Source: Blastomussa wellsi
Taxonomy: Eukaryota > Cnidaria > Anthozoa > Scleractinia > Plerogyridae
Direction of reading: 5' to 3'
Assembly (NCBI GenBank): GCA_947652115.1
Contig: OX393568.1
Location: 15,340,673 to 15,404,672, forward strand
DNA: 64,000 bases
Position 1 is the stretch's first letter; each line of letters begins with the position of its first letter. The position numbers and the translations under genes were made by a program. This document shows, piece by piece, positions 5,002 to 64,000 of the stretch. The notes beneath the pieces were generated by a model. It saw nothing but the letters and a program-made list of their open reading frames with translations, searched no databases and was not told the origin of the DNA.

Positions 5002-5193
5002 CTGTGTGGGAAAACCGAGGAATAGCGTGGAATTACAGAGCCCTATTTAATGTGAGTACGATTGATTCATGTTCATGCTTTTTTTATGGAGATTTTGCCG
5101 CTAGGTAGAAGTGCCAGATCGGTTTTCCGCTGATCTAAACGGCGATTTGTTCAGTTCGGAAGCGTAGTTTCCGGTCGCTGACCGACATGAACC

Positions 5194-5466
5194 ATGTGCG
5201 GGTCACTAATCAAAGTACATTTCTCAGCTTTAATCCGGAGCTGCCTAAAAATCAAGCGAATCCTTGATGTTACACACTATTCCTCAGATCATTTGAGACC
5301 ATGCATGGCTTGCCGGGTCAACTCTTGCGCTGGAAATTTTGAAGTCTGTGATGCCATTAATTTTTATGTTGTAAATAATAATTTAATTGAATTAGTAGAC
5401 TTCGTGATTTTGTTGTTATGCCCAAACTGCAATCTTCTTGCTCCGAAAAGACATAGGTTAGATTAA
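5194..5466 (+). other. 90-codon ORF in the satellite monomer, unassigned
   Basis: The predicted peptide is cysteine-rich (PCMACRVNSCAG, then LLLCPNCNLL) and has a hydrophobic stretch. It is the longest ATG-started ORF in the monomer that is not microsatellite-derived. It appears unbroken in every complete copy (for example at 7034, 8874, 10718, 51203 and 61636). No family is recognised. Because the copies are homogenised, an open frame across copies is not evidence of selection. Confidence 0.25.
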
Positions 5467-5763
5467 TTTGCGTTGATTTGAGTTCAGAATAGTGCCCATT
5501 GACACCGTCAGTCCTTGCGAAAAGATGCCTTCAGAACTATAGTGTCATGTCAACTTTACCTAACCGAGTTCTGTTGAATCAAGACAGAGAAACAATAACA
5601 GTAATACTAGCACTGAACTTTCGGATAAGTGAGTCACCAAGGAGAATAGAAGCTGCCAATCCTTTTAAATTTTATAGCGTCGACATTCGAGAGAGTTTCT
5701 GGCGATAAAACAACCGCTTTTGGCGAGAAAATACAGCTTCGCAGGTGTTTCGCTCACAATTTC

Positions 5764-5794
5764 CTTTGACCCTGTTTACATAAATCCAGTCATA
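5764..5794 (-). repeat. Right terminal inverted repeat of the monomer core
   Basis: It ends CATAAATCCAGTCATA and is the inverted partner of 4119-4149. The core it closes is 1,676 bp. Confidence 0.85.
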
Positions 5795-5955
5795 AAATGC
5801 CATATTACAAGACCAACTGACTGTAAAGGGGCTAAAGATTGCATATTTCCAGACCAGCTGACTAGAAAAAGTCTAAAATAGGCTTCTCCGGTTGCAATAG
5901 TTTTTTTTCAATGCATTCTGACAAAACTAGGCCTTGTGTCCGAAACACTGCATCA
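5795..5955 (+). repeat. Spacer between monomer cores, with a direct repeat
   Basis: This 161-bp segment separates one core from the next. It contains an imperfect direct repeat (AGACCAACTGACTGTAAA and AGACCAGCTGACTAGAAA) and the AGGCCT site that the large transposon targeted in the right-hand monomers (equivalent to 51938-51943). Confidence 0.8.
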
Positions 5956-8900
5956 TATGACTGGATTTATGAAAACGAGGTCAAAGAATTAATGACCCCC
6001 TTCTCACGTTGTAAGGATGAAGACTTGTTAGGCATGTTAATTAGGCGTAAAAATCGGGCCAAGAAGGGAGCGAAAATAAAATCAATAATAATAATAGCAA
6101 TGTTAGTAATAATAGTAATAATAATGATAATAATAATATTAATAATCTGTCTTGATTTAGCAAAAAAGGGGCTTGAGGCAATAGAGGAAATGTATGAGAT
6201 TTCGATCTAGTTTGTTTGTTTTGCGAAGTAACCGTCGGTGACTATTGGCCACTCTTTGCATGAAATCTTACCCTTCATAATGTTCCCATGCCAAATTCGT
6301 GATGTCTGGTACATTTTACTGTAGCCCACTCCCCCCCCCCCCTCCCTCCCGCACCCCACCCGTTATTTTTGGCCATTTTTACCCAGGCCCCAGCTCGATG
6401 AGTACATCGGTTTGAATTTTTGACACCGCGCGGTAGCTGATCTGTAGGTTTACCAATCCTGCCGTCTAAAGGAAGTTTGCCGGAGGACATCATTAAGTCC
6501 AATGAAGGTGGAAGTCCAACGATTTGCAATCTAAGCGTCGGCTATTATCTTTCCTTAAACAAAGCTCTAACGGGTGAACTTGAACAACTCGTTACGACTT
6601 GTGCGAGGCGGGATAGTGAGGTGCTTGCTTTAGACGGCAAAAAGTCCTTCGCCACACCAAATAGGACTCCCTACCAGACTTGACGGGTGATTCGAAGGCG
6701 GCCATGCCGATATGTGGCTGGAACTATTCTGTGGCGAAAGACTTAGAAAAATTCTGCTCTAATTTTGGTAGTATTGTGTCCCGCGCAAAAAAATTTCGTT
6801 ACATCCGGGCGATTGCATTCAATTTCCTAGAAAATGGCTAGCTGTGTGGGAAAACCGAGGAATAGCGTGGAATTACAGAGCCCTATTTAATGTGAGTATG
6901 ATTGATTCATGTTCATGCTTTTTTTATGGAGATTTTGCCGCTAGGTAGAAGTGCCAGATCGGTTTTCCGCTGATCTAAACGGCGATTTGTTCAGTTCGGA
7001 AGCGTAGTTTCCGGTCGCTGACCGACATGAACCATGTGCGGGTCACTAATCAAAGTACATTTCTCAGCTTTAATCCGGAGCTGCCTAAAAATCAAGCGAA
7101 TCCTTGATGTTACACACTATTCCTCAGATCATTTGAGACCATGCATGGCTTGCCGGGTCAACTCTTGCGCTGGAAATTTTGAAGTCTGTGATGCCATTAA
7201 TTTTTATGTTGTAAATAATAATTTAATTGAATTAGTAGACTTCGTGATTTTGTTGTTATGCCCAAACTGCAATCTTCTTGCTCCGAAAAGACATAGGTTA
7301 GATTAATTTGCGTTGATTTGAGTTCAGAATAGTGCCCATTGACACCGTCAGTCCTTGCGAAAAGATGCCTTCAGAACTATAGTGTCATGTCAACTTTACC
7401 TAACCGAGTTCTGTTGAATCAAGACAGAGAAACAATAACAGTAATACTAGCACTGAACTTTCGGATAAGTGAGTCACCAAGGAGAATAGAAGCTGCCAAT
7501 CCTTTTAAATTTTATAGCGTCGACATTCGAGAGAGTTTCTGGCGATAAAACAACCGCTTTTGGCGAGAAAATACAGCTTCGCAGGTGTTTCGCTCACAAT
7601 TTCCTTTGACCCTGTTTACATAAATCCAGTCATAAAATGCCATATTACAAGACCAACTGACTGTAAAGGGGCTAAAGATTGCATATTTCCAGACCAGCTG
7701 ACTAGAAAAAGTCTAAAATAGGCTTCTCCGGTTGCAATAGTTTTTTTTCAATGCATTCTGACAAAACTAGGCCTTGTGTCCGAAACACTGCATCATATGA
7801 CTGGATTTATGAAAACGAGGTCAAAGAATTAATGACCCCCTTCTCACGTTGTAAGGATGAAGACTTGTTAGGCATGTTAATTAGGCGTAAAAATCGGGCC
7901 AAGAAGGGAGCGAAAATAAAATCAATAATAATAATAGCAATGTTAGTAATAATAGTAATAATAATGATAATAATAATATTAATAATCTGTCTTGATTTAG
8001 CAAAAAAGGGGCTTGAGGCAATAGAGGAAATGTATGAGATTTCGATCTAGTTTGTTTGTTTTGCGAAGTAACCGTCGGTGACTATTGGCCACTCTTTGCA
8101 TGAAATCTTACCCTTCATAATGTTCCCATGCCAAATTCGTGATGTCTGGTACATTTTACTGTAGCCCACTCCCCCCCCCCCCTCCCTCCCGCACCCCACC
8201 CGTTATTTTTGGCCATTTTTACCCAGGCCCCAGCTCGATGAGTACATCGGTTTGAATTTTTGACACCGCGCGGTAGCTGATCTGTAGGTTTACCAATCCT
8301 GCCGTCTAAAGGAAGTTTGCCGGAGGACATCATTAAGTCCAATGAAGGTGGAAGTCCAACGATTTGCAATCTAAGCGTCGGCTATTATCTTTCCTTAAAC
8401 AAAGCTCTAACGGGTGAACTTGAACAACTCGTTACGACTTGTGCGAGGCGGGATAGTGAGGTGCTTGCTTTAGACGGCAAAAAGTCCTTCGCCACACCAA
8501 ATAGGACTCCCTACCGGACTTGACGGGTGATTCGAAGGCGGCCATGCCGATATGTGGCTGGAACTATTCTGTGGCGAAAGACTTAGAAAAATTCTGCTCT
8601 AATTTTGGTAGTATTGTGTCCCGCGCAAAAAAATTTCGTTACATCCGGGCGATTGCATTCAATTTCCTAGAAAATGGCTAGCTGTGTGGGAAAACCGAGG
8701 AATAGCGTGGAATTACAGAGCCCTATTTAATGTGAGTACGATTGATTCATGTTCATGCTTTTTTTATGGAGATTTTGCCGCTAGGTAGAAGTGCCAGATC
8801 GGTTTTCCGCTGATCTAAACGGCGATTTGTTCAGTTCGGAAGCGTAGTTTCCGGTCGCTGACCGACATGAACCATGTGTGGGTCACTAATCAAAGTACAT

Positions 8901-49341: not shown

Positions 49342-49541
49342 NNNNNNNNNNNNNNNNNNNNNNNNNNNNNNNNNNNNNNNNNNNNNNNNNNNNNNNNNNN
49401 NNNNNNNNNNNNNNNNNNNNNNNNNNNNNNNNNNNNNNNNNNNNNNNNNNNNNNNNNNNNNNNNNNNNNNNNNNNNNNNNNNNNNNNNNNNNNNNNNNNN
49501 NNNNNNNNNNNNNNNNNNNNNNNNNNNNNNNNNNNNNNNNN
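49342..49541. other. Assembly gap, 200 N
   Basis: Exactly 200 unknown bases. The left edge is in mid-monomer 25 and the right edge is inside the transposase gene of a transposon copy. At least the remainder of a monomer and about 8 kb of transposon must be missing if the 10,433-bp unit is complete, so the true gap is much larger than 200 bp. Confidence 0.97.
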
Positions 49542-49753
49542 TGACGTACGCTTATTCTGATTCCATGGACGAGGATAAGGAACGCTACTATTTCACTGTG
49601 TTGAAATCCAAGATTAAAGTACCTTTCTATAAGTTCTTCACGATCCGTACTTGCAGGTCCTAAAACAGGGATGTATCCTTCTAGAACTCCATTTGTACCA
49701 ATAAAAAGACAAATTATAAAGACAAAAATTCCAAGGAGATGTAGCGTCGACAT
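49542..49753 (-). CDS. IS3-like integrase/transposase, copy 1, N-terminal part
   Basis: ATG at 49753. The frame encodes the hydrophobic leader and the start of the helix-turn-helix (ELIERYFNLGF), then runs into the gap after about 70 residues. It is the same as the start of the full gene at 60186. Truncation is by the assembly gap, not by mutation. Confidence 0.85.
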
Positions 49754-50098
49754 TCTTCTCCAATAAACTCGCCTGTTCTGTACACGCTTTCTTTAGTCGT
49801 TCGCCATCGTCGCCATCTTGTTCCACGTGAACGTGACTTGAGCCCGCGGGTTCCAGCGTTCTCTGCCAAACAACTCGACAACTCGACATCTCGACAACTC
49901 GACAACTCGACAACTCAACATCTCGACATCTCGATATCTCGACATCTCGACATCTCGACATCTCGATATCTCGATATCTCGACATCTCGACATCTCGACA
50001 ACTCGACATCTCTACATTTTATACTCAACAACTCAACAACTCGACATCTCAACAACTCGACAAGTCGACATCTTGCATGGCCCTTTGGGGGCTCCGTA
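49542..50098 (-). mobile_element. Transposon copy 1, 3' end only (probable IS3EU with HECT)
   Basis: It matches 59975-60531 at an offset of 10,433 bp with no difference that I noticed. It includes the first 70 codons of the transposase and the whole right TIR (49798-50098), ending CTCCGTA. It is followed by AGGCCT (50099-50104), the right-hand target duplication. Confidence 0.93.
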
Positions 50099-51943
50099 AG
50101 GCCTTGTGTCCGAAACACTGCATCATATGACTGGATTTATGAAAACGAGGTCAAAGAATTAATGACCCCCTTCTCACGTTGTAAGGATGAAGACTTGTTA
50201 GGCATGTTAATTAGGCGTAAAAATCGGGCCAAGAAGGGAGCGAAAATAAAATCAATAATAATAATAGCAATGTTAGTAATAATAGTAATAATAATGATAA
50301 TAATAATATTAATAATCTGTCTTGATTTAGCAAAAAAGGGGCTTGAGGCAATAGAGGAAATGTATGAGATTTCGATCTAGTTTGTTTGTTTTGCGAAGTA
50401 ACCGTCGGTGACTATTGGCCACTCTTTGCATGAAATCTTACCCTTCATAATGTTCCCATGCCAAATTCGTGATGTCTGGTACATTTTACTGTAGCCCACT
50501 CCCCCCCCCCCTCCCTCCCGCACCCCACCCGTTATTTTTGGCCATTTTTACCCAGGCCCCAGCTCGATGAGTACATCGGTTTGAATTTTTGACACCGCGC
50601 GGTAGCTGATCTGTAGGTTTACCAATCCTGCCGTCTAAAGGAAGTTTGCCGGAGGACATCATTAAGTCCAATGAAGGTGGAAGTCCAACGATTTGCAATC
50701 TAAGCGTCGGCTATTATCTTTCCTTAAACAAAGCTCTAACGGGTGAACTTGAACAACTCGTTACGACTTGTGCGAGGCGGGATAGTGAGGTGCTTGCTTT
50801 AGACGGCAAAAAGTCCTTCGCCACACCAAATAGGACTCCCTACCGGACTTGACGGGTGATTCGAAGGCGGCCATGCCGATATGTGGCTGGAACTATTCTG
50901 TGGCGAAAGACTTAGAAAAATTCTGCTCTAATTTTGGTAGTATTGTGTCCCGCGCAAAAAAATTTCGTTACATCCGGGCGATTGCATTCAATTTCCTAGA
51001 AAATGGCTAGCTGTGTGGGAAAACCGAGGAATAGCGTGGAATTACAGAGCCCTATTTAATGTGAGTACGATTGATTCATGTTCATGCTTTTTTTATGGAG
51101 ATTTTGCCGCTAGGTAGAAGTGCCAGATCGGTTTTCTGCTGATCTAAACGGCGATTTGTTCAGTTCGGAAGCGTAGTTTCCGGTCGCTGACCGACATGAA
51201 CCATGTGCGGGTCACTAATCAAAGTACATTTCTCAGCTTTAATCCGGAGCTGCCTAAAAATCAAGCGAATCCTTGATGTTACACACTATTCCTCAGATCA
51301 TTTGAGACCATGCATGGCTTGCCGGGTCAACTCTTGCGCTGGAAATTTTGAAGTCTGTGATGCCATTAATTTTTATGTTGTAAATAATAATTTAATTGAA
51401 TTAGTAGACTTCGTGATTTTGTTGTTATGCCCAAACTGCAATCTTCTTGCTCCGAAAAGACATAGGTTAGATTAATTTGCGTTGATTTGAGTTCAGAATA
51501 GTGCCCATTGACACCGTCAGTCCTTGCGAAAAGATGCCTTCAGAACTATAGTGTCATGTCAACTTTACCTAACCGAGTTCTGTTGAATCAAGACAGAGAA
51601 ACAATAACAGTAATACTAGCACTGAACTTTCGGATAAGTGAGTCACCAAGGAGAATAGAAGCTGCCAATCCTTTTAAATTTTATAGCGTCGACATTCGAG
51701 AGAGTTTCTGGCGATAAAACAACCGCTTTTGGCGAGAAAATACAGCTTCGCAGGTGTTTCGCTCACAATTTCCTTTGACCCTGTTTACATAAATCCAGTC
51801 ATAAAATGCCATATTACAAGACCAACTGACTGTAAAGGGGCTAAAGATTGCATATTTCCAGACCAGCTGACTAGAAAAAGTCTAAAATAGGCTTCTCCGG
51901 TTGCAATAGTTTTTTTTCAATGCATTCTGACAAAACTAGGCCT
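50099..51943 (+). repeat. Single satellite monomer between transposon copies 1 and 2
   Basis: One full monomer including an AGGCCT duplication at each end (50099-50104 and 51938-51943). It starts and ends at the transposon insertion point in the spacer. It has TTTTCTGCTG near 51133-51142, where the array monomers have TTTTCCGCTG; the same change is in the monomer at 60532-62376. Confidence 0.95.
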
Positions 51944-51970
51944 TACGGAGCCCCCTAAGGGCCATGCAAG

Positions 51971-52124
51971 ATGTCGACTTGTCGAGTTGTTGAGTTGTTG
52001 AGTATAAAATGTCGAGATGTCGAGTTGTCGAGATGTTGAGATGTCGAGATGTCGAGTTGTCGAGATGTCGAGATGTCGAGATGTCAAGATGTTGAGATGT
52101 CGAGATGTCGAGATGTTGAGTTGT
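51971..52124 (+). repeat. Octamer minisatellite in the left TIR
   Basis: Tandem 8-mers of the type ATGTCGAG, with variants TTGTCGAG, ATGTTGAG, TTGTTGAG and ATGTCAAG, interrupted once by GTATAAAATG. The right arm has more copies and includes ATATCGAG variants. The period of 8 is not a multiple of 3, so translations through it give repetitive peptides in all frames that should not be read as genes. Confidence 0.93.
52003..52009 (+). promoter_or_regulatory. TATA box of the HECT gene in the left TIR
   Basis: TATAAAA interrupts the octamer repeat 169 bp before the ATG at 52178. Initiation about 30 bp downstream would make most of the minisatellite a 5' UTR. The mirror-image box lies at 60450-60456 for the transposase. 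Inferred from position and motif only. Confidence 0.5.
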
Positions 52125-52164
52125 TTGGCAGAGAACGCTGGAACCCGCGGGCTCAAGTCACGTT

Positions 52165-52190
52165 CACGTGGAACAAGATGGCGACGATGG
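52165..52190 (+). promoter_or_regulatory. E-box and YY1-like motif overlapping the start codon
   Basis: CACGTG at 52165-52170 is followed by AAGATGGCG at 52176-52184, which matches the core of a YY1 site and contains the ATG. The same arrangement is present in the right TIR (CACGTG at 60257-60262). YY1-type motifs at start sites guide initiation in some animal promoters; the role here is inference. Confidence 0.35.
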
Positions 52191-55100
52191 CGAACGGCGA
52201 TTGCGACGAGATTGAGGTATTTCAAATGAACTTTTCCCGTTCCTATCTTTATGAGAAGTTTAGGGAGCAACTACAGAATGCAGGGCCACCATGGTCCACC
52301 TTTGTTTTCAAGTATCGGTTCTCTTTGAAGAACGAAGCGTAACACAATGGATGCTTTTCTTATTCAAATGAATGAATAAATTTGGCCCAAATGAATGAAT
52401 AAATTGGGCCCTGTATTCTGTAGTTAAGCCAAGTTAGTTACGGTACTTACAACAGTTACGCGAACAGAGTAGGAGTATTATATTAGGTAGATCCCTTGGA
52501 AAATTATTAGTAATTGTACTTGTATTATTACCATGTTTACAAACGTGACATAAGAGTCGTTTTACTTCTTGTTGTTCCAGGAGGTGTGTTCCTTTCTGCG
52601 CTTAAGAAACGTAAAAGAGGAAACAATTGAAAAGAACTTTAAAGAGCAGAAGGTAAGAAGTGGAACATGTACGTAAAGTTTTAATATTACTAGCATGGCA
52701 ATGGAAGCCCATGCATATACTTCTTATGATCTCGTATGTATGGTCCAATTCCAATTCCAGCTGTTACCACCCCCCCCCCCCCCCCAGGACAATTCCGGCC
52801 CTTTAGGCCCGGGGGTTGGTAATTGTTGGAATAAGTCTTGTCTCGGGGGAAAAATCGAAAGTAACTTTTCGTTGTTTTTGTAAAGTACTTCGCTTGACTG
52901 TTTACCCAGCACGGAGAAGATTGCCTAATTTCCAGAAAACATCTATAGAATTTGTAACTGACAATTAAGACAAGGATAATCTCTCAAGTTTAAAAGCTGT
53001 TGTTTAACAAAACTTGTGGCTGGATGTGACCTATTTTTTTTTTGTAATAAAGCATGGTCTTTCATATTATAAATTTTATCTGAATGCTTACTTTAAAAAG
53101 TAGCATTTAAGTTCTTAACAAACCATCTGGATTTGCTTTTGTACAGAAATTAATACTTTTAACTCTATTTGGCACAAAAAGGATGTATTTATGCTTTATT
53201 ATATGGGTAGCTCTGTGAGCGGGCAAGATGAACCCGAAGGGGGCTACCCGAGTGGGCAAGATGGAGCGATCTTGCCCGCTCGGGATTATGCGCTTTGTCT
53301 CGCAAGTACAAAGCTCACTTTTTGGTGTCTTATCCCATGTAATAAATCCTTTATTGACCAAGCTTGTTCGGTCAAGATGGCTGGATATTGGCCTCTTTCT
53401 TTTTTTGCGAATTTATGGACCTAGACTTCGTCTCAGTCCATAAACACGCAAAAAAAGAAGAACTTGGCCTATATCCAGCCATCTTGACCTCTCACTTGGT
53501 CAATAACCCAAACTTATTACGAGTCCCGGGGGTGGGAATAGACTGCCAAGAAATGAAAAAATGGCACTGAAATCCCCAGAAGTTTGACTGTTGGCAGGAG
53601 ATGGTCACTGTTGGAATTGAACCATACATTATTGTGCTCTTAAATTTTATTTCCACGTAAGTATGTGTTCACGTTCCTCAAACTTTATTATTTATTTATT
53701 TATCTTGTTGTTATAATTATTACCTGCATATGTAAATAAAAGATGTAATTTTTTTTTCATGAATTGTAGTATATCTTATGGTCCATTCCACATAAGTGGT
53801 GTAAAATGACAGTCCAGTAACTGTGGAATATAGTTTGTGGCAATCAATTGTGCAAACGTCAATCCATTTAAAATCTGGTATGTTCGTTTGAACTGTTGCC
53901 ATGGTGACAACAATGAAGAAGATTGATGAGACTGTTGAAAAGATTGGAAAAGTTGAAACTTCATGTTTTCTTTGTAAAGAGAGCTCACACAAGAGCTCTC
54001 TGATAGTTTAGCAGCCGTTAGTTCCATTTTTAAATAAGAATAAAAATTCCAGCTTTTGACTAATGTCTCCTGATTTCTTATGTATTTATAATTGCTTTAT
54101 TTATTATCAGATGGATTTTCAAGCGATAGTCATGTCATCAGCGGAGGAACTTCAACAACTGGGATGTGTGAGAGGGGATGCGATGAATTTGAAGCATTTT
54201 GCTGAGAAAAAACTTAAGGAAAGACAGCAGGACCCTGGAAAGAATGAAAGAAAGCGCCTCCTTGAAGAAGTATTGAGTCAAGGCACCAAAACCAGGGGAA
54301 AACAACCCTCAAAGATGAATGTGTCAAGAAGGAAACCTATTCGTAAAGTCCATCTTGGATGGTTTCATTTCAATGAAGCAACCAAAACGTATGTGCAAGT
54401 CAAAACGCAGAAAGGTGGAGGTACGCGGGTTGTAGAGTTACCTCTGCTTGCAACAAGAGAAGTTATTGTTAGTACTGGGATAAGCTGTTTCTTCCCAAAT
54501 GGAACAAGTACCTTTGGTTCCTCTGATGAAATGGAATTTTCAATTTCAAATTTCCAACAACAGGAAATTGATAGTGATGATGGCTTCACCCTAGAGAGCT
54601 ACATTGATCAATTCAAACTGAACAGGGTTACCTTGTACCTGATGAGCCGAAAAGGACCATTACCACGCCCACCTTCAACCACACCTGGCTCATTGACAAG
54701 TGATTCTGATACTGACTTAGAGAGATCAGTTTTTGAAACAAAATCAACACCTCATCAAAATAATCAACCCATGGTGTCAGCAGAGGCTTTAACTGAGAGA
54801 CGAAGGCTTGTTGCAGAACAAGATGAACAGTACATGGCATCTTTGGAGGCTGACAGGGAAAAAGAAAAAGCGAAGAAGCAAAAGCTGGAAGAAGAGGTTG
54901 AGGCTGACAGGGAAAAAGAAAAAGCGAAGAAGCAAAAGCTGGAAGAAGAGGTTGAGAAGGCTAATCGGCAAACAGAAATAATGCTGGCCAGGAAAGCTAG
55001 AGTTCCAGATGAACCTCTTCCTGAAGAAGAGAAAGTGGTGGTACGTGTGCGCCATGTTACTTGTGGCATTGTAGATAGAGCTTTCAAACCTGACACTTTG

Positions 55101-57714
55101 ATGGCATCAGTGTATGACTGGGTGGGGTCATTAAATATCACCCCAGAAAACTTTGTACTGTCTAATATGAAGAATGATCTAATGCCAAGTGAATCCATCC
55201 AGTCCATAGCCCAAAACAGTGGTTGCATAGTGTTAAACATGAGAGAAAGCCAATGCATGCCACCTCTTGCTGGTCATGTCAATTTCAGAGGCTTTGGGGA
55301 AGAAGCCATCGACCTGAACAGCACAGTGTCAGATGACAACCATGTTTTACCCACTACAGGTGTCCCTATTCAGTTAATGGAAGATGATAGCAGGTAAGTG
55401 GAGAGAATTGCATGTTTAATGAGTATTTCAAAAGATTTTAGATTTGTTATGTATGTTTATCGCCGCCATGTTTTTATTTCTCCCCCAGGAGCTCCCTTTT
55501 TTACCTTTTTGATAATAATTATTTGAAAGGCGACTTGGGGAAATAGTGAATTGAGCGCTATGTCCTTTATCAATCTGTGCTCTTCCTCTGCTCTTTCGTC
55601 TTTCTCTTAGTAGTCATTGTAATTCTGACTGTTACAATTGCTTTAACAGTGTCGACGAATCCTTGCCAGAGAACAACGATGATCATCATGGTACCTTCTC
55701 ATTGGATGATCCACCTGTGGCTGCCTTCCAACCACCTGTTAGGAGTAGCTTTGTTGGCCAGGATGTCAGAGATGTAAGAATGTGTTAATGGTATTGCATT
55801 CGTTTGGCAGCAAAGGATACAAGAAGTTCAAGAAGTTTGATGTTCCATAGTTATTCGATCAAGTGTCCAACCTTAAATAAGTGCCTATCCCGAATAAGAG
55901 CCCACCCTGTAGGAAGGCAAAGTTAATAAGCGCACAGGCTATAAAAAACTAAAAAACAAATTGCACAAAGAGGAGTACCAGGGAGGTCGCTATTTGATCT
56001 GAGAGACTTTCCCAAAGACCAATTTTTAATGGTCAGTTAAAAATCTTCTTTGGTGCATCTTCACGTTTTGTTGTTATGTATTGTTTTGTTGCAAAATAAA
56101 CTTACCTTTAGCTGAACATGGCAAAAATTTAAGAAGTGCCTAGCTTTGAATAAGCACCCATTCTCAGGGTCGCAAAGTTTACTAGAAGAAATTGTTTGTT
56201 AAAATGGTCTTTTGTTTAAACAGACTTCCTGCACTCGACAATAACTGACAAGTCCAAAAAGAGTATCGAAGACTAATGTTACGCTTGTCAATGAAAATTG
56301 TTCTTGGAATCCTTGTAATACTCTAATGGATGTATATTTCTCTTTTATACAGCGTGGCTGGCATTTCAGGAGATGGGTCAATGAGCTTGTACAAAACAGA
56401 AGTGAAAATCAGGGGTATGATGGTAAGCATGTAGTTTCAATGTATAAATTAAGTAATAAATTAAGTAAGTAGTTCTCACATTTGTACAGAGGACATGTTT
56501 TTGCATTGTTAACATCTGCTGTGCTCACAATCGTTACTGTGATGACATAGACATTTCCCTTTATTCAACATCAATGAACTTACTCAATAGTATAAGATGT
56601 TTGGTGTTCAATTTCCACATTTTTTAGAGTTAAATGAGTTTTTAAACTTGTTTAAGGAATGCAAGGTCAAGATATGGAGGCAGAAGTCAGACGTGTGACA
56701 GTGAGAAGGGATGACATCCTCAATGCTGTGCTGAAGTTGTACATGGAGGATGATGACATAGTCAAGTGTAGACTTGTTATCCACTTTGAAGGAGAAGTCG
56801 GCATTGACTTTGGAGGCTTGACAAAAGACTTCTTTACCTCCTTCTGGGAGGAGGTATTTGAAAAGTACTTTGATGGCGATGTTGTCAAAGTCCCTTTAGT
56901 CTCCCCTCAGAAGATGGGCGATAGCGATAGGCTAGTCATTCAAGCACTCGGGCGCATACTTGAACATGGCTGGAAGCTCACCGGCGAACTCCCCGTGCGA
57001 TTCTGTGAAGCTTCGTTCGTAGGAATGCTTCATGGAGAAGATGCCGTCCCAGGTGATGTATTGGAAAGATCATTTCTGTGGTACATCACTGATTTTGAGA
57101 GGGGCATTCTTTGTAGTGCTTTAGAAGGAGGGGAGGTACACGAGTACAAGAAGGATGCCCTGTTTAGCTTGTATCGTAAGTTCTCCATGCAGTGTCTTCC
57201 AGCAGCATCAGAAGACAAGCTGCATGAGCATATCGTCGCTATGGCACGATGTGAGTTCTTACATAAGCCAATGGTAATCCTGTCTTGGATGCGAAGTGGG
57301 ATTACTGAACTGGACTCTTTACAAAAGAGTCTTTCTGTCCAGAAGATCTGTGAATTGTACAAAGTCCTATCGCCAACTGTTACTAACGTGTTGAAGACCA
57401 TGAGAGCGTATTGCGAAGATTTGAGACCCGACGAGGAACGTTCTTACAACTTCTTGACCGTATACATCGGAAGCATGGACGGTGATCAGCTTCTAAAGTT
57501 TCTTCACTTTGTGACAGGTTCCACAGTTACTCCAGTTGGTACTGGTATAACGGTTTGTTTCAATTCTACACAAGGGCTAAGTCGTGTTCCCACTGCTGCA
57601 ACGTGCAGTAATACATTAACCATTTCAACAACTTATGAAAGTTATGCCACTTTTAAGAAAGAATTCACTAATTTCCTAAGCAGCAAGGAAATTTTGCAGA
57701 TGAATGTCTTATAA
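52178..57714 (+). CDS. SAM / coiled-coil / UBX-like / HECT E3 ubiquitin ligase (G2E3-like), six exons
   Basis: My exon model is 52178-52216, 52581-52652, 54111-55393, 55650-55773, 56353-56422 and 56657-57714. All introns are GT-AG, all phases agree, and the sum is 2,646 nt (881 residues plus stop). Residues about 13-70 form a SAM-like domain spread over exons 2-3 (FLRLRNVKEETI, then MSSAEELQQLGCVRGDA). About 85-190 is a conserved-looking block (LGWFHFNEATKTYV, FFPNGTSTFG). About 264-333 is a charged coiled coil with an exact tandem duplication of 18 residues. About 344-415 is a UBX/ubiquitin-like fold (VRVRHVTCGIVDRAF). About 545-881 is a HECT domain with GEVGIDFGGLTKDFF and a probable catalytic Cys846 in AATCSNTL. 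HECT enzymes take ubiquitin onto that Cys and pass it to a substrate. Exon 1 lies in the TIR; its donor (GAG|GTATTT) is the weakest junction. Confidence 0.85.
53249..53282. repeat. Short perfect-stem hairpin in intron 2
   Basis: CGAGTGGGCAAGAT and ATCTTGCCCGCTCG form a 14-bp stem with one G-T type mismatch around the 6-base loop GGAGCG. A third copy of GCGGGCAAGAT lies just upstream at 53219-53229, in direct orientation. Confidence 0.7.
53351..53506. repeat. Nested MITE-like hairpin, TTATTGACCAAG ends
   Basis: A 156-bp inverted repeat. The left arm (TTATTGACCAAG ... GGTCAAGATGGCTGGATAT) and the right arm (ATATCCAGCCATCTTGACC ... CTTGGTCAATAA) match with a few indels, around a small loop near 53422-53435 that also contains a TTTATGGAC/GTCCATAAA pair. 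It sits inside intron 2 of the larger transposon. The next copy has it at 63784-63939. Confidence 0.75.
54846..54953 (+). repeat. Exact 54-bp tandem duplication in the coiled coil
   Basis: The segment encoding EADREKEKAKKQKLEEEV occurs twice in direct succession with identical DNA, so the duplication is recent or is kept homogenised. It lengthens the coiled coil by 18 residues. Confidence 0.9.
55860..56190. repeat. Degenerate interspersed repeat in intron 4
   Basis: Intron 4 (55774-56352) contains motifs such as AATAAGTGCCTATCCCGAATAAG near 55876 and AAGTGCCTAGCTTTGAATAAG near 56134, a repeated AATAAGyGCC pattern. I have the impression that this pattern occurs in interspersed repeats of marine invertebrates, but I cannot name the family. 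Confidence 0.35.
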
Positions 57715-58673
57715 ATCTCTTCTACATCGATGAGGGACCTTATAAGTTTTACATGGGGAAAAAACTTGTTGTTTATCGCAGCATGCGAGACTGTTTACCT
57801 TTCGTCTTTTTTTGGAGAACAATGTCATAACATTCCTTAATGTTGATAAGGGACTTTGAATGAGTTGTTTATTGAGACTGAAAAACTTGTGTTTTTTATG
57901 TGGAGAACAACGTTATAACATTCCTTAATGTTGATAAGGGACTTTTGTTGTTTATGAGTTGTTTGTTTACCGTTCGTCTTTTTTGAAGAAGAATTTCGCA
58001 ACATTCCTCATCGCGTTTGATGAGTAACTTTTGTTCATTAAGAAAACACTAGTGTTTTTATCGCAGAGTGCGAGACTGTTCGCATTCCATCTTTTAAACG
58101 TTGTTGTTACCAGTTTTGTTTGCGTAGTTGGGTTGTCACTGTCACAAGTTTATTTTGGTACACTTTCCAGGCGTTATACCAAGATTTTCGCGCAGATATA
58201 TCCAGGCCAACTGGTAATTCCTGAAGTCAATAGAGATATGAGATTAGGATAAAAAACATCAGTCAGCTGCGGGTGCGAAAAATAGATTCACATTCGAGCC
58301 AAAGGACGATAGAATTTTAACTCAGCATTAGGGAGGTGTTCGAGGTAACAGATTTCGAGTAATAATAGTGTAAACAACAGTTGAATTTAGATATAAGAGG
58401 GGGGGGGGTCGAACCTAACTTTCTACCTTCAAAAGGGGGGGTTGACGCCTAATTTCAAATGTTATGGAGGGAGGGCTCAAGCTAACTTTTGCCCGTTTTG
58501 TTCTCATTTTTCAGCCCCCCCTCCCGATAATTATTGCGCAGTCCCTTACAACGTGGTGAATAGAATACTAACGAAAGGCGAAATAGAAATCCCCTCTCTC
58601 ACCCTGTAGATACCAACGCAACTCAAAATACGGCATGAAAAAAAAATTCAGAAAAAAAGGTAAACTAATCAAC

Positions 58674-58679
58674 TTTATT
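58674..58679 (-). terminator. Candidate polyadenylation signal of the transposase
   Basis: AATAAA on the minus strand (TTTATT on the plus), about 236 nt downstream of the stop codon at 58915-58917. Motif only. Confidence 0.4.
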
Positions 58680-58825
58680 TCGTCCCTAAAAACTGAACAG
58701 TAACAATGAAAGGCAAGGGTCAATCAGTGGAAGTGAAGGTGCTGTTAGTTGAGAACGGACTATTAAGAATTAACAAACAATTAACAAGTCCCCATATAAC
58801 GATTTGCAAACTGAACCATCACTGA

Positions 58826-58831
58826 AATAAA
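58826..58831 (+). terminator. Candidate polyadenylation signal of the HECT gene
   Basis: AATAAA on the plus strand, about 1.1 kb after the HECT stop and only 84 bp before the transposase stop. Motif only; an upstream non-canonical signal is possible. Confidence 0.3.
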
Positions 58832-58914
58832 AGGGCCAATCATTGGACCCGGAGTTAGTTTAGCAGTGATTATTAACGACCGAAAACGAGAAAGTGCCTT
58901 CTTTCAGCATGACG

Positions 58915-60186
58915 TTATATGCTTTCTATTTCTTCCATAAGTTTGATATACAAGGCTTTTGCTGCCTCGGGTGACTGAGGTGTGTCAAGTCCAAGGTCGT
59001 TCATTATTGTTGTAGCAAGTTGCGCAAATGACTCAAGACAGTCAGGCGGAGGGTCACAGCAGCAAACCTCCTGGGCTACGTCAATGTCGTCATCGTCGAC
59101 AGCGTACTTATGATCTCTAATATCTTGTGCTAGTAATGATGGCATGAAGTACAAGGTGTCGGGTCTACCTGGGGGAGAGTTAGGATTGGTAGAAGGTCGA
59201 ATGCGGTGTACATTCCAATGGATAGCAGCTCTCCGGAGCTCGTCTCGTATTACAGGCATATAGCAGAACTTGAGACATTCTATATGAAGTATGTTAGCAT
59301 CACAGTACAAGCCACGATCTCTCAGATCTTTAAAATGGCTAATCCACCACTCTGTACAGTTTTTTCGCAATTGCCCCCACCAGGCTTCAATCCTCTGATT
59401 AGAGACAGACTTCCCATACATGAAACTTTTGCTGCCTGAAAGCGAATCAGGGCAGTCACGCCTAAAAAAACGTTGCATACCTGCAACTTTCACGTTTTCT
59501 GTACCGTAGTCAGCACGCATAACTGTTGCCGTTCCCCCAACTTGTTTGACACAGTCAAGAAAATATTTTCCCACAACACGGGGATCGTTATTTGTTGAAC
59601 CCACCTCCAGCCACATAATGCGCCGGCTAAACCCATCTATGCATCCATGGACACAAAACCCAAAGGGTTTTAGTTTGTCATATCCGTCAATGTGCCATAG
59701 AAAATTGGGGCCCTTAGCTCTATATTGCCTTCTTCGCAATCTGTTTCGTAGTCGCAAGGAGACCCCTTCTGGATCTATTATCCTTAGAGCCTGTCGTACT
59801 GTTTCTCGGCTAACAACCATTCCGTGATCATTTCGCAATCGTTGCCACATGGCACGATAACCAATACAACTCCCACTTCCTTCCATTTCTTGTTCGATAG
59901 TCCTAACAACTAAACCTAAATCTGCCTGATGTCCCCTTCTTCTAAGGCCTCTTCTCTGCAAAATTCGTTTAAGTTGACGTACGCTTATTCTGATTCCATG
60001 GACGAGGATAAGGAACGCTACTATTTCACTGTGTTGAAATCCAAGATTAAAGTACCTTTCTATAAGTTCTTCACGATCCGTACTTGCAGGTCCTAAAACA
60101 GGGATGTATCCTTCTAGAACTCCATTTGTACCAATAAAAAGACAAATTATAAAGACAAAAATTCCAAGGAGATGTAGCGTCGACAT
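58915..60186 (-). CDS. IS3-like DDE integrase / transposase (integrase core domain)
   Basis: A 423-residue single-exon frame. Residues 37-84 form a helix-turn-helix region (ELIERYFNLGFQ ... RQLKRILQRRGLRRRG). The catalytic core follows, with Asp167 in WHIDGYDKLKPFG, Asp226 in MRADYGTEN and Glu267 in NQRIEAWWGQLRK, the DDE triad of IS3 and retroviral-type integrases. Related proteins, annotated as integrase core domain proteins, are known to me from fishes and cnidarians. It would cut the TIR ends and insert the element with a 6-bp stagger. Odd: residues 4-24 are strongly hydrophobic, like a signal peptide, yet no in-frame Met occurs before residue 101, so the ATG at 60186 is the only start that keeps the helix-turn-helix. 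A spliced start from the TIR ATG is an alternative. No stop or frameshift is seen. Confidence 0.9.
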   Translation of the reverse strand: MSTLHLLGIFVFIICLFIGTNGVLEGYIPVLGPASTDREELIERYFNLGFQHSEIVAFLILVHGIRISVRQLKRILQRRGLRRRGHQADLGLVVRTIEQEMEGSGSCIGYRAMWQRLRNDHGMVVSRETVRQALRIIDPEGVSLRLRNRLRRRQYRAKGPNFLWHIDGYDKLKPFGFCVHGCIDGFSRRIMWLEVGSTNNDPRVVGKYFLDCVKQVGGTATVMRADYGTENVKVAGMQRFFRRDCPDSLSGSKSFMYGKSVSNQRIEAWWGQLRKNCTEWWISHFKDLRDRGLYCDANILHIECLKFCYMPVIRDELRRAAIHWNVHRIRPSTNPNSPPGRPDTLYFMPSLLAQDIRDHKYAVDDDDIDVAQEVCCCDPPPDCLESFAQLATTIMNDLGLDTPQSPEAAKALYIKLMEEIESI

Positions 60187-60225
60187 TCTTCTCCAATAAA
60201 CTCGCCTGTTCTGTACACGCTTTCT

Positions 60226-60249
60226 TTAGTCGTTCGCCATCGTCGCCAT
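60226..60249 (-). other. Short upstream ORF from the TIR start codon
   Basis: In the right TIR the same ATG that starts the HECT gene in the left TIR opens a 7-codon frame (MATMAND) ending in TAA, 39 bp before the transposase ATG. It could act as an upstream ORF that lowers transposase translation, or be removed by splicing. Inference from sequence only. Confidence 0.35.
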
Positions 60250-60531
60250 CTTGTTCCACGTGAACGTGACTTGAGCCCGCGGGTTCCAGCGTTCTCTGCC
60301 AAACAACTCGACAACTCGACATCTCGACAACTCGACAACTCGACAACTCAACATCTCGACATCTCGATATCTCGACATCTCGACATCTCGACATCTCGAT
60401 ATCTCGATATCTCGACATCTCGACATCTCGACAACTCGACATCTCTACATTTTATACTCAACAACTCAACAACTCGACATCTCAACAACTCGACAAGTCG
60501 ACATCTTGCATGGCCCTTTGGGGGCTCCGTA
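60231..60531 (-). repeat. Right TIR of the transposon (301 bp)
   Basis: It is the inverted partner of 51944-52196 and carries its own octamer minisatellite (CGACATCT/CGACAACT/CGATATCT on the plus strand, about 60305-60506). It has a TATA box reading leftward (TTTTATA at 60450-60456) and an E-box (60257-60262). Confidence 0.93.
60450..60456 (-). promoter_or_regulatory. TATA box of the transposase gene in the right TIR
   Basis: TATAAAA on the minus strand, about 265 bp upstream of the transposase ATG at 60186, equivalent to 52003-52009 in the left arm. Inferred from motif and symmetry. Confidence 0.5.
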
Positions 60532-62376
60532 AGGCCTTGTGTCCGAAACACTGCATCATATGACTGGATTTATGAAAACGAGGTCAAAGAATTAATGACC
60601 CCCTTCTCACGTTGTAAGGATGAAGACTTGTTAGGCATGTTAATTAGGCGTAAAAATCGGGCCAAGAAGGGAGCGAAAATAAAATCAATAATAATAATAG
60701 CAATGTTAGTAATAATAGTAATAATAATGATAATAATAATATTAATAATCTGTCTTGATTTAGCAAAAAAGGGGCTTGAGGCAATAGAGGAAATGTATGA
60801 GATTTCGATCTAGTTTGTTTGTTTTGCGAAGTAACCGTCGGTGACTATTGGCCACTCTTTGCATGAAATCTTACCCTTCATAATGTTCCCATGCCAAATT
60901 CGTGATGTCTGGTACATTTTACTGTAGCCCACTCCCCCCCCCCCTCCCTCCCGCACCCCACCCGTTATTTTTGGCCATTTTTACCCAGGCCCCAGCTCGA
61001 TGAGTACATCGGTTTGAATTTTTGACACCGCGCGGTAGCTGATCTGTAGGTTTACCAATCCTGCCGTCTAAAGGAAGTTTGCCGGAGGACATCATTAAGT
61101 CCAATGAAGGTGGAAGTCCAACGATTTGCAATCTAAGCGTCGGCTATTATCTTTCCTTAAACAAAGCTCTAACGGGTGAACTTGAACAACTCGTTACGAC
61201 TTGTGCGAGGCGGGATAGTGAGGTGCTTGCTTTAGACGGCAAAAAGTCCTTCGCCACACCAAATAGGACTCCCTACCGGACTTGACGGGTGATTCGAAGG
61301 CGGCCATGCCGATATGTGGCTGGAACTATTCTGTGGCGAAAGACTTAGAAAAATTCTGCTCTAATTTTGGTAGTATTGTGTCCCGCGCAAAAAAATTTCG
61401 TTACATCCGGGCGATTGCATTCAATTTCCTAGAAAATGGCTAGCTGTGTGGGAAAACCGAGGAATAGCGTGGAATTACAGAGCCCTATTTAATGTGAGTA
61501 CGATTGATTCATGTTCATGCTTTTTTTATGGAGATTTTGCCGCTAGGTAGAAGTGCCAGATCGGTTTTCTGCTGATCTAAACGGCGATTTGTTCAGTTCG
61601 GAAGCGTAGTTTCCGGTCGCTGACCGACATGAACCATGTGCGGGTCACTAATCAAAGTACATTTCTCAGCTTTAATCCGGAGCTGCCTAAAAATCAAGCG
61701 AATCCTTGATGTTACACACTATTCCTCAGATCATTTGAGACCATGCATGGCTTGCCGGGTCAACTCTTGCGCTGGAAATTTTGAAGTCTGTGATGCCATT
61801 AATTTTTATGTTGTAAATAATAATTTAATTGAATTAGTAGACTTCGTGATTTTGTTGTTATGCCCAAACTGCAATCTTCTTGCTCCGAAAAGACATAGGT
61901 TAGATTAATTTGCGTTGATTTGAGTTCAGAATAGTGCCCATTGACACCGTCAGTCCTTGCGAAAAGATGCCTTCAGAACTATAGTGTCATGTCAACTTTA
62001 CCTAACCGAGTTCTGTTGAATCAAGACAGAGAAACAATAACAGTAATACTAGCACTGAACTTTCGGATAAGTGAGTCACCAAGGAGAATAGAAGCTGCCA
62101 ATCCTTTTAAATTTTATAGCGTCGACATTCGAGAGAGTTTCTGGCGATAAAACAACCGCTTTTGGCGAGAAAATACAGCTTCGCAGGTGTTTCGCTCACA
62201 ATTTCCTTTGACCCTGTTTACATAAATCCAGTCATAAAATGCCATATTACAAGACCAACTGACTGTAAAGGGGCTAAAGATTGCATATTTCCAGACCAGC
62301 TGACTAGAAAAAGTCTAAAATAGGCTTCTCCGGTTGCAATAGTTTTTTTTCAATGCATTCTGACAAAACTAGGCCT
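60532..62376 (+). repeat. Single satellite monomer between transposon copies 2 and 3
   Basis: It is an equivalent of 50099-51943 at an offset of 10,433 bp with AGGCCT at both ends. It carries the same TTTTCTGCTG variant (near 61566-61575), showing common descent of the composite unit. Confidence 0.95.
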
Positions 62377-62610
62377 TACGGAGCCCCCTAAGGGCCATGC
62401 AAGATGTCGACTTGTCGAGTTGTTGAGTTGTTGAGTATAAAATGTCGAGATGTCGAGTTGTCGAGATGTTGAGATGTCGAGATGTCGAGTTGTCGAGATG
62501 TCGAGATGTCGAGATGTCAAGATGTTGAGATGTCGAGATGTCGAGATGTTGAGTTGTTTGGCAGAGAACGCTGGAACCCGCGGGCTCAAGTCACGTTCAC
62601 GTGGAACAAG

Positions 62611-63085
62611 ATGGCGACGATGGCGAACGGCGATTGCGACGAGATTGAGGTATTTCAAATGAACTTTTCCCGTTCCTATCTTTATGAGAAGTTTAGGGAG
62701 CAACTACAGAATGCAGGGCCACCATGGTCCACCTTTGTTTTCAAGTATCGGTTCTCTTTGAAGAACGAAGCGTAACACAATGGATGCTTTTCTTATTCAA
62801 ATGAATGAATAAATTTGGCCCAAATGAATGAATAAATTGGGCCCTGTATTCTGTAGTTAAGCCAAGTTAGTTACGGTACTTACAACAGTTACGCGAACAG
62901 AGTAGGAGTATTATATTAGGTAGATCCCTTGGAAAATTATTAGTAATTGTACTTGTATTATTACCATGTTTACAAACGTGACATAAGAGTCGTTTTACTT
63001 CTTGTTGTTCCAGGAGGTGTGTTCCTTTCTGCGCTTAAGAAACGTAAAAGAGGAAACAATTGAAAAGAACTTTAAAGAGCAGAAG
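62611..63085 (+). CDS. HECT E3 ligase, copy 3, exons 1-2 only
   Basis: Exon 1 is at 62611-62649 and exon 2 at 63014-63085, with the same junctions as the complete gene. Exon 3 would start near 64544, outside the window. The visible part encodes the N-terminus and the first half of the SAM-like domain and has no visible break. Confidence 0.75.
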
Positions 63086-63783
63086 GTAAGAAGTGGAACA
63101 TGTACGTAAAGTTTTAATATTACTAGCATGGCAATGGAAGCCCATGCATATACTTCTTATGATCTCGTATGTATGGTCCAATTCCAATTCCAGCTGTTAC
63201 CACCCCCCCCCCCCCCCCAGGACAATTCCGGCCCTTTAGGCCCGGGGGTTGGTAATTGTTGGAATAAGTCTTGTCTCGGGGGAAAAATCGAAAGTAACTT
63301 TTCGTTGTTTTTGTAAAGTACTTCGCTTGACTGTTTACCCAGCACGGAGAAGATTGCCTAATTTCCAGAAAACATCTATAGAATTTGTAACTGACAATTA
63401 AGACAAGGATAATCTCTCAAGTTTAAAAGCTGTTGTTTAACAAAACTCGTGGCTGGATGTGACCTATTTTTTTTTTGTAATAAAGCATGGTCTTTCATAT
63501 TATAAATTTTATCTGAATGCTTACTTTAAAAAGTAGCATTTAAGTTCTTAACAAACCATCTGGATTTGCTTTTGTACAGAAATTAATACTTTTAACTCTA
63601 TTTGGCACAAAAAGGATGTATTTATGCTTTATTATATGGGTAGCTCTGTGAGCGGGCAAGATGAACCCGAAGGGGGCTACCCGAGTGGGCAAGATGGAGC
63701 GATCTTGCCCGCTCGGGATTATGCGCTTTGTCTCGCAAGTACAAAGCTCACTTTTTGGTGTCTTATCCCATGTAATAAATCCT

Positions 63784-63939
63784 TTATTGACCAAGCTTGT
63801 TCGGTCAAGATGGCTGGATATTGGCCTCTTTCTTTTTTTGCGAATTTATGGACCTAGACTTCGTCTCAGTCCATAAACACGCAAAAAAAGAAGAACTTGG
63901 CCTATATCCAGCCATCTTGACCTCTCACTTGGTCAATAA
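63784..63939. repeat. Nested MITE-like hairpin in transposon copy 3
   Basis: Same hairpin as 53351-53506 at an offset of 10,433 bp, which shows the nested insertion predates amplification of the composite unit. Confidence 0.75.
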
Positions 63940-64000
63940 CCCAAACTTATTACGAGTCCCGGGGGTGGGAATAGACTGCCAAGAAATGAAAAAATGGCAC

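What the first reader, a model, noticed from the sequence alone, without database searches (positions are those of the whole stretch)
51938..60537. Intact integrase-type DNA transposon carrying its own HECT ubiquitin ligase
Ends are fixed to the base by comparison with the empty site in neighbouring monomers: a single AGGCCT there, two copies here around TACGGAG...CTCCGTA. Between long TIRs lie only two genes, convergent and unbroken: a DDE transposase and a HECT E3 with SAM and UBX-like parts. A transposon that keeps an intact ubiquitin ligase suggests the ligase serves the element, for instance by degrading a host restriction factor, controlling transposase level or acting in the cell cycle. 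HECT-plus-integrase pairs may explain the many G2E3-like gene copies in anthozoan and fish genomes. The assignment to IS3EU rests on my memory of that group's 6-bp duplications and TAY/RTA ends.
Basis: partly seen in the sequence, partly recalled or inferred. Interest (0 to 1): 0.88.

Follow-up and report, generated by a model that had tools for sequence, protein, structure and literature searches.

The report
Jumping gene with a ubiquitin ligase
A mobile DNA element in an animal genome, probably a coral or sea anemone, carries a gene for a predicted protein-tagging enzyme (a HECT ubiquitin ligase) beside its transposase gene, and the four related element families examined in the same genome carry one too, so the enzyme likely works for the element rather than being a chance passenger.

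Summary
Window 51944-60531 (8,588 bp) is a complete DNA transposon flanked by AGGCCT. It has TACGGAG...CTCCGTA ends and two convergent genes: a DDE transposase (Pfam rva_4) and a HECT ligase (PF00632). Eight insertion sites of this family each have their own exact 6-bp duplication. Seven hold full-length copies with both genes, 99.3% identical or more over the main block; the eighth is a deletion derivative. Four more distant families in the same genome (transposase 40-57% identical) also carry a convergent HECT gene, so it is likely an old, retained part of this lineage. It diverges faster than the transposase (HECT domain 21-29% identical to the window's).

TSD length and termini fit IS3EU, but Repbase could not be consulted. 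No held paper combined IS3EU with HECT. The ligase's target is not shown; I favour a host factor.

Unexpected extra: the transposase and most listed relatives begin with a signal-peptide-like segment (43 of 57 dereplicated rows by a simple rule, including one false positive).

Not done: the genome-wide HECT count (server unreachable). dN/dS was uninformative.

The parts
51938..51943 (.). left copy of the 6-bp target site duplication AGGCCT
   Evidence: single AGGCCT in 24 empty monomers, two copies around the element
51944..60531 (.). complete transposon, 8,588 bp, TACGGAG...CTCCGTA
51944..52196 (+). left terminal inverted repeat, mostly an array of 8-bp units (GAGATGTC-like)
   Evidence: inverted arms 51935-52003 and 52009-52196 pair with the right end at 94% and 93%; 8-bp spacing of direct repeats
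60231..60531 (-). right terminal inverted repeat with the same kind of 8-bp array
60532..60537 (.). right copy of the target site duplication AGGCCT
52178..57714 (+). HECT ligase gene, predicted exons 52178-52216, 52581-52652, 54111-55393, 55650-55773, 56353-56422, 56657-57714 (881 aa); starts inside the inner left TIR
   Evidence: GT-AG model without stops; PF00632 E=2.2e-10; coding length and frame kept in 7 of 8 full-length copies
54111..55393 (+). large exon: ubiquitin-like region, coiled coil, second ubiquitin-like (UBX-like) region
   Evidence: AlphaFold model mean pLDDT 73.5, Foldseek matches to di-ubiquitin; aligned with anemone and metagenome proteins and with L021 and L022
56657..57714 (+). 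HECT domain exon with the C-lobe cysteine (PTAATCSNTL)
   Evidence: PF00632 E=5e-11; aligns with E6AP PTSHTCFNVL; that this is the catalytic Cys of E6AP is recalled
58915..60186 (-). DDE transposase, 423 aa; D167, D226, E267
   Evidence: rva_4 E=6.4e-36; D226 and E267 in 125 of 125 aligned rows, D167 in 124 of 125
60121..60186 (-). predicted signal-peptide-like N-terminus of the transposase (residues 1-22, before VLEGYIP)
   Evidence: pattern only, no predictor or experiment
49542..50098 (.). right-hand tail of an upstream tandem copy of the element, cut by the assembly gap 49342-49541
   Evidence: 49542-53567 and 59975-64000 are 99.975% identical; gap read
62377..64000 (.). left part of the next tandem copy (continues outside the window; L013 in full)
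   Evidence: L013 99.94% identical to the window copy

Best explanation
This is a two-gene DNA transposon, present in nearly identical copies each flanked by its own 6-bp target duplication, that carries opposite its DDE transposase a HECT-type ubiquitin-ligase gene which four related families in the same genome also carry, so the ligase is likely an accessory gene that serves the element. Proposed mechanism (inferred): the transposase cuts and inserts the element by binding the long repeat-rich TIRs. Both genes start at or just inside the inner TIRs and are probably driven from there. The HECT protein would use its ubiquitin-like, coiled-coil and other N-terminal modules to recruit a protein that limits transposition, most likely a host factor, and its C-lobe cysteine to ubiquitinate it. 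Shown: anatomy, duplications, multi-site copies, open genes, and HECT genes in the related families. Inferred: ligase activity, benefit to the element, and the target.
For: Eight sites with different exact 6-bp duplications. Full-length copies 99.3-100% identical over the main aligned block at seven of the eight sites. HECT coding frame complete in 7 of 8 full-length copies, and the transposase frame in 8 of 8. Convergent HECT in L021, L022 and L023 (tblastn E 4e-35, 1e-29, 1e-21) and in L024 (open 717-codon frame; profile-profile probability 97%, E=1e-10; Foldseek to the HUWE1 HECT domain E=9e-11). L023 and L024 themselves have TAC...GTA ends with 16 of 16 paired terminal bases and exact 6-bp duplications. 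The C-lobe cysteine is kept in all five families. HECT-to-window identity (29, 27, 25, 21%) is well below transposase identity (57, 57, 49, 40%), and the modules N-terminal to HECT differ between families. That fits a changing partner better than a fixed housekeeping role.
Against: No expression, ligase assay or transposition assay. Only 14 of the 100 transposase matches were read with flanks, and the four other families were picked by me, one per identity tier. The genome-wide HECT count never ran. Within-family changes (3 nonsynonymous, 2 synonymous in HECT; 3 and 1 in the transposase) do not show constraint. Fast HECT divergence could also mean weak constraint. L010 lacks the last 8 bases of the HECT frame. 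Pfam does not call HECT in L023 or L024 and is just below its cut-off for L021. The ends of L021 and L022 were not determined.
Confidence: 0.58

Rival explanations
1. The ligase acts on the element's own transposase: it limits copy number, clears spent transpososomes, or controls where the transposase goes in the cell.
For: The two genes are always convergent in the five families read. Coiled coil and UBX-like parts occur in the three families whose transposase has a signal-peptide-like start and not in the two without (n=5).
Against: HECT diverges much faster than the transposase, which is not expected if its substrate is the transposase. The five-family correlation is one tree and may be plain ancestry.
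Confidence: 0.25
2. The HECT protein is a structural partner of the transpososome (in the way RAG2-like proteins partner RAG1-like transposases) and its ligase activity is secondary or lost.
For: Same layout of two convergent genes as reported for RAG-like transposons (PMC7204232, abstract seen in the listing).
Against: The C-lobe cysteine is kept in all five families, which speaks for catalysis.
Confidence: 0.1
3. Chance capture: a host HECT gene was picked up and rides along without function for the element.
For: Other IS3EU elements carry other genes (TET/JBP and alpha-kinase in fungi; passages of PMC12730594), so cargo varies between lineages.
Against: HECT is present in all five families examined although transposases differ by up to 60%, with long open frames.
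Confidence: 0.07

Closest known systems
[quoted passage not shown]
   Same: 6-bp target duplications, TA...TA termini, DDE integrase-like transposase.
   Different: The passages of that paper that I read describe no HECT gene, and its text has no occurrence of HECT, ubiquitin or signal peptide. Repbase entries themselves could not be searched.
Fungal TET/JBP-bearing IS3EU elements (PMC12730594, passages read)
   Same: IS3EU with 6-bp duplications and TAYGG..CCRTA ends; second gene (alpha-kinase) opposite to the transposase, so an accessory gene in the same layout.
   Different: The accessory genes are an alpha-kinase and a TET/JBP dioxygenase, not a HECT ligase; hosts are fungi. HECT and ubiquitin do not occur in that text.
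RAG-like (RAGL/ProtoRAG) transposons (PMC7204232 and PMC4411706, starts of abstracts in listings)
   Same: Two genes, convergent, one the DDE-type recombinase and one a partner protein retained by the element.
   Different: Different transposase family and partner (RAG2-like, not HECT).
HECT E3 ligases such as E6AP, HUWE1, SMURF, NEDD4
   Same: Fold and C-lobe cysteine.
   Different: Very divergent; the known ones are cellular enzymes, this one lies between transposon TIRs.

Membership tests
IS3EU superfamily | target duplications of 6 bp | tested here: met
   9 of 9 copies at 8 sites; L023 and L024 too; not tested in L021 and L022 (left ends not fetched)
IS3EU superfamily | TA...TA termini (TAYGG..CCRTA in fungal members) | tested here: met
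   TACGG..CCGTA in this family and in L024; L023 has TACGA..TCGTA, so TA..TA but not the GG (definition)
IS3EU superfamily | DDE integrase-like transposase | tested here: met
   Pfam rva_4 E=6e-36; acidic triad D167, D226, E267 conserved in 124, 125 and 125 of 125 aligned rows
IS3EU superfamily | no HHCC zinc motif before the catalytic core | not tested
   Pfam gives only weak helix-turn-helix matches there; no specific test made
IS3EU superfamily | groups with IS3EU consensus transposases in a tree | not testable with these tools
   Repbase/Dfam sequences not held
HECT E3 ligases | HECT domain by curated profile | tested here: met
   window 41-43 bits against a cut-off of 23.9; L022 27.7 met; L021 22.9 just below; L023 and L024 no match, their case resting on tblastn/alignment and on profile comparison plus fold
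HECT E3 ligases | catalytic cysteine in the C-lobe | tested here: met
   aligned with E6AP C-lobe and kept in five families
HECT E3 ligases | ubiquitin ligase activity | not testable with these tools
   needs an assay
SAM domain protein | Pfam SAM match | tested here: not met
   none in a listing to E=5; helices only
UBX domain protein | UBX fold and p97-binding FPR loop (loop motif recalled) | tested here: inconclusive
   ubiquitin-like fold; one UBX structure among the 50 weak Foldseek matches shown, E=5e-3; no Pfam UBX; by eye no FPR in the alignment

The most novel reading that the evidence does not exclude
A transposon lineage whose integrase-type transposase is made as a secretory-pathway protein (cleavable signal peptide followed by a conserved VLxxYIP mature start), and whose own ubiquitin-like/coiled-coil HECT ligase brings it back out of the ER, or licenses its release, so that transposition needs both genes: a mobile element that runs its transposase through the ER and its own dislocation machinery.
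Probability: 0.1. Interest if true: 0.93.

Novelty: new variant of a known kind. Interest (0 to 1): 0.72.

Why it matters
If the ligase serves the element, this lineage carries its own tool for reshaping the host's protein turnover. It can then be used to find host factors that restrict or license DNA transposition: identify what the ligase ubiquitinates. Nearly identical copies with open genes make a cell-based assay realistic. It may also give a source for the many HECT-like genes of corals and fishes, which could be checked by looking for TIRs around them. The signal-peptide-like start of the transposase would, if real, be hard to square with a simple nuclear enzyme and can be tested directly.

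Tried and rejected
Chance capture only in this copy: rejected on 7 of 8 sites and four further families. 'L024 has no HECT': my first reading from tblastn, overturned by its 717-codon frame, profile comparison and fold. dN/dS within the family: too few changes; between families too divergent, not computed. Relatives in other collections: transposase in viral contigs, HECT in viral contigs, and both in genome contigs gave nothing. Protein searches gave no genomic context. A metagenome transposase (P0201) and a HECT protein (P0022) both list a longest contig of 10,467 bases, which suggests but does not show one contig. An intron misread as the signal-peptide-like segment: considered; by reading the DNA printed, L022 has no AG before the conserved VPLTNYIP, but the window and L021 do have AGs nearby, so there it is not excluded. 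The signal-peptide label is not clustered on the transposase tree beyond shuffles (10 changes; 123 of 500 shuffles as low). Simple-rule controls: 10 of 117 HECT homologs and 0 of 57 internal slices pass. The rule was written after seeing the sequences, and one of the 43 positives (P0155) is by eye a false one. Array monomer: no Rfam family at gathering score, no tRNA, only short ORFs.
Full report
What is there. The window lies at G000:C12:15340673-15404672 of an unnamed 367.8-Mb genome. Its nearest named protein relatives are corals and an anemone, so an anthozoan host is inferred, not shown. A transposon occupies 51944-60531 (8,588 bp). The duplicated AGGCCT is single in 24 neighbouring monomers. 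The ends are TACGGAG...CTCCGTA with long inverted repeats largely made of 8-bp units.

Array. The element is part of a tandem of at least three element+monomer units of 10,433 bp. A tail of one copy follows a 200-N gap (49342-49541), then the window copy, then L013 (99.94% identical), then one monomer and most of a second, where the array match ends. All share AGGCCT, so one insertion was followed by amplification of the monomer (inferred). The gap leaves the copy number open.

Copies. The transposase search listed 100 matches in this genome (only the best candidates are scored, so a lower bound): near-identical copies, then tiers at about 54-61, 49 and 38-47% identity. I read 14 of the 100 with flanks: nine copies of this family, one more that lies beside a stretch of N (L020), and one representative of each of four other families, chosen by me. 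Nine copies at eight sites have exact 6-bp duplications, different at each site. Seven sites hold the full element at 99.3-100% identity over the main block. The eighth (L017) lacks element positions 5055-7085, which removes the end of both genes. The HECT coding length and frame are kept in 7 of 8 full-length copies (L010 lacks its last 8 bases), and the transposase frame in 8 of 8. Substitutions against the majority over seven independent copies: HECT exons 6 in 2,646, transposase 4 in 1,272, HECT introns 11 in 2,891, TIRs 18 in 540, other 6 in 1,239. Of those that could be classed, HECT has 3 nonsynonymous and 2 synonymous, the transposase 3 and 1. These numbers say that the copies are young; they do not test selection.

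Other families. L021 and L022 (transposase 57% identical to the window's), L023 (49%) and L024 (40%) all have a convergent second gene. In L021-L023 it matches the window HECT protein. In L024 Pfam finds no HECT, but the 717-codon frame matches the HECT profile by hhalign (probability 97%, E=1.2e-10, 17% identity over 308 columns) and its AlphaFold model (pLDDT 74.7) matches HECT domains in the PDB (best HUWE1, E=8.6e-11). L023's gene is one open frame of 657 codons, also unseen by Pfam. L023 (4691-9527) and L024 (3829-9514) have their own TAC...GTA TIRs and exact 6-bp duplications, ACACTC and GTAATC. The C-lobe cysteine is kept throughout. HECT identity to the window is 29, 27, 25 and 21%, against 57, 57, 49 and 40% for the transposase.

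Protein anatomy. The predicted 881-aa ligase has N-terminal helices, a ubiquitin-like region, a coiled coil, a second ubiquitin-like region and HECT. Pfam confirms HECT only. The model of the big exon (pLDDT 73.5, pTM 0.33, six sequences) matches di-ubiquitin, with ten matches at E<=0.001; the high rmsd is expected for two separate domains. Coil plus second ubiquitin-like part are found in L021 and L022 (E 3e-19, 1e-26). They are not found inside L023 or L024; the one weak L023 match, E=0.01-0.02, lies outside that element. L024 instead begins with a cysteine-rich stretch (Pfam DZR only E=0.41). The transposase has D167, D226 and E267, conserved in 124, 125 and 125 of 125 aligned rows.

Signal-peptide-like start. 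The transposase starts MSTLHLLGIFVFIICLFIGTNG-VLEGYIP. I examined the 120 listed of 1,534 homologs plus five own-genome rows. A VLxxYIP-like motif was found in 70 of 125 rows. Of these 70, 66 have a strongly hydrophobic 10-mer before it and 60 have a prefix of 17-30 residues. The residue before the motif is A, G, S or C in 63 of 69, and the -3 residue S, V, T or A in 57 of 69. Many of these rows are near-copies. After dereplication at 75% identity a stricter rule flags 43 of 57 rows (one by eye false), against 10 of 117 HECT homologs and 0 of 57 internal slices. The label is scattered over the tree (10 changes, no better than shuffles). Some negatives start right at the motif and may be truncated predictions; others start past it and look like real losses. 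L023 and L024 lack it. This is a pattern seen with a home-made rule, without a trained predictor.

Mechanism. The best-supported statement is that the HECT gene is a retained accessory gene of this lineage. I commit to a host factor as the likely target: HECT diverges faster than the transposase, and the modules N-terminal to it differ between families. I put about 0.85 on 'accessory gene that serves the element' and somewhat over half on 'host target' given that. Control of the transposase itself is the main rival, and it gains some weight from the signal-peptide-like start.

Known or new. TSD length and termini agree with IS3EU as described in PMC10045372 and PMC12730594 (passages read). The latter reports fungal IS3EU elements with a TET/JBP gene between oppositely oriented transposase and alpha-kinase genes, so accessory genes in IS3EU are known; neither text mentions HECT. 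Ten literature searches covered open-licence PMC only. IS3EU with HECT gave 0 papers; DNA transposon, HECT domain, ubiquitin ligase and terminal inverted repeat together gave 0; Repbase, HECT domain and transposase together gave 0. Searches listed papers holding other combinations of terms; I did not open them. Repbase was not available, so a HECT annotation there cannot be excluded. I therefore call it a new variant of a known kind.

Noticed in passing
60121-60186 (-), and homologs P0125-P0244, L021, L022: Transposase N-terminus looks like a secretory signal peptide followed by a conserved VLxxYIP start; 43 of 57 dereplicated rows pass a simple rule (one by eye false).
   Followed up: partly
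4118-64000: Array of ~1.84-kb monomers (about 99.7% alike), no Rfam or tRNA match; after a 200-N gap the monomer carrying the element is itself repeated (period 10,433) at least three times.
   Followed up: partly
52178-52216 and about 60210-60240: Both inner TIR arms carry ATGGCGACGATGGCGAACG: on the left it is the predicted HECT start, on the right it opens a 7-codon frame (MATMAND, stop) upstream of the transposase ATG, a possible upstream ORF.
   Followed up: no
54846-54953: Exact 54-bp tandem duplication (18 codons) in the coiled-coil part of the HECT gene; seven of eight full-length copies have the same coding length.
   Followed up: no
L023 4691-9527, L024 3829-9514: TIRs of other families are also built of short tandem units, of other length (about 21 and 20 bp from the spacing of inverted-repeat hits).
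   Followed up: no
about 53370-53490: A long inverted repeat (foldback-like) inside the second intron of the HECT gene, seen by eye in the sequence.
   Followed up: no
P0201 and P0022: A metagenome transposase and a metagenome HECT protein both list a longest contig of 10,467 bases, hinting that the pair sits together in another organism.
   Followed up: partly
P0121-P0124: Fish proteins (two of the four named zgc:112970) resemble the L024 HECT protein over half its length or a little less (44-54% covered, 31-37% identity); possible transposon-derived genes.
   Followed up: no
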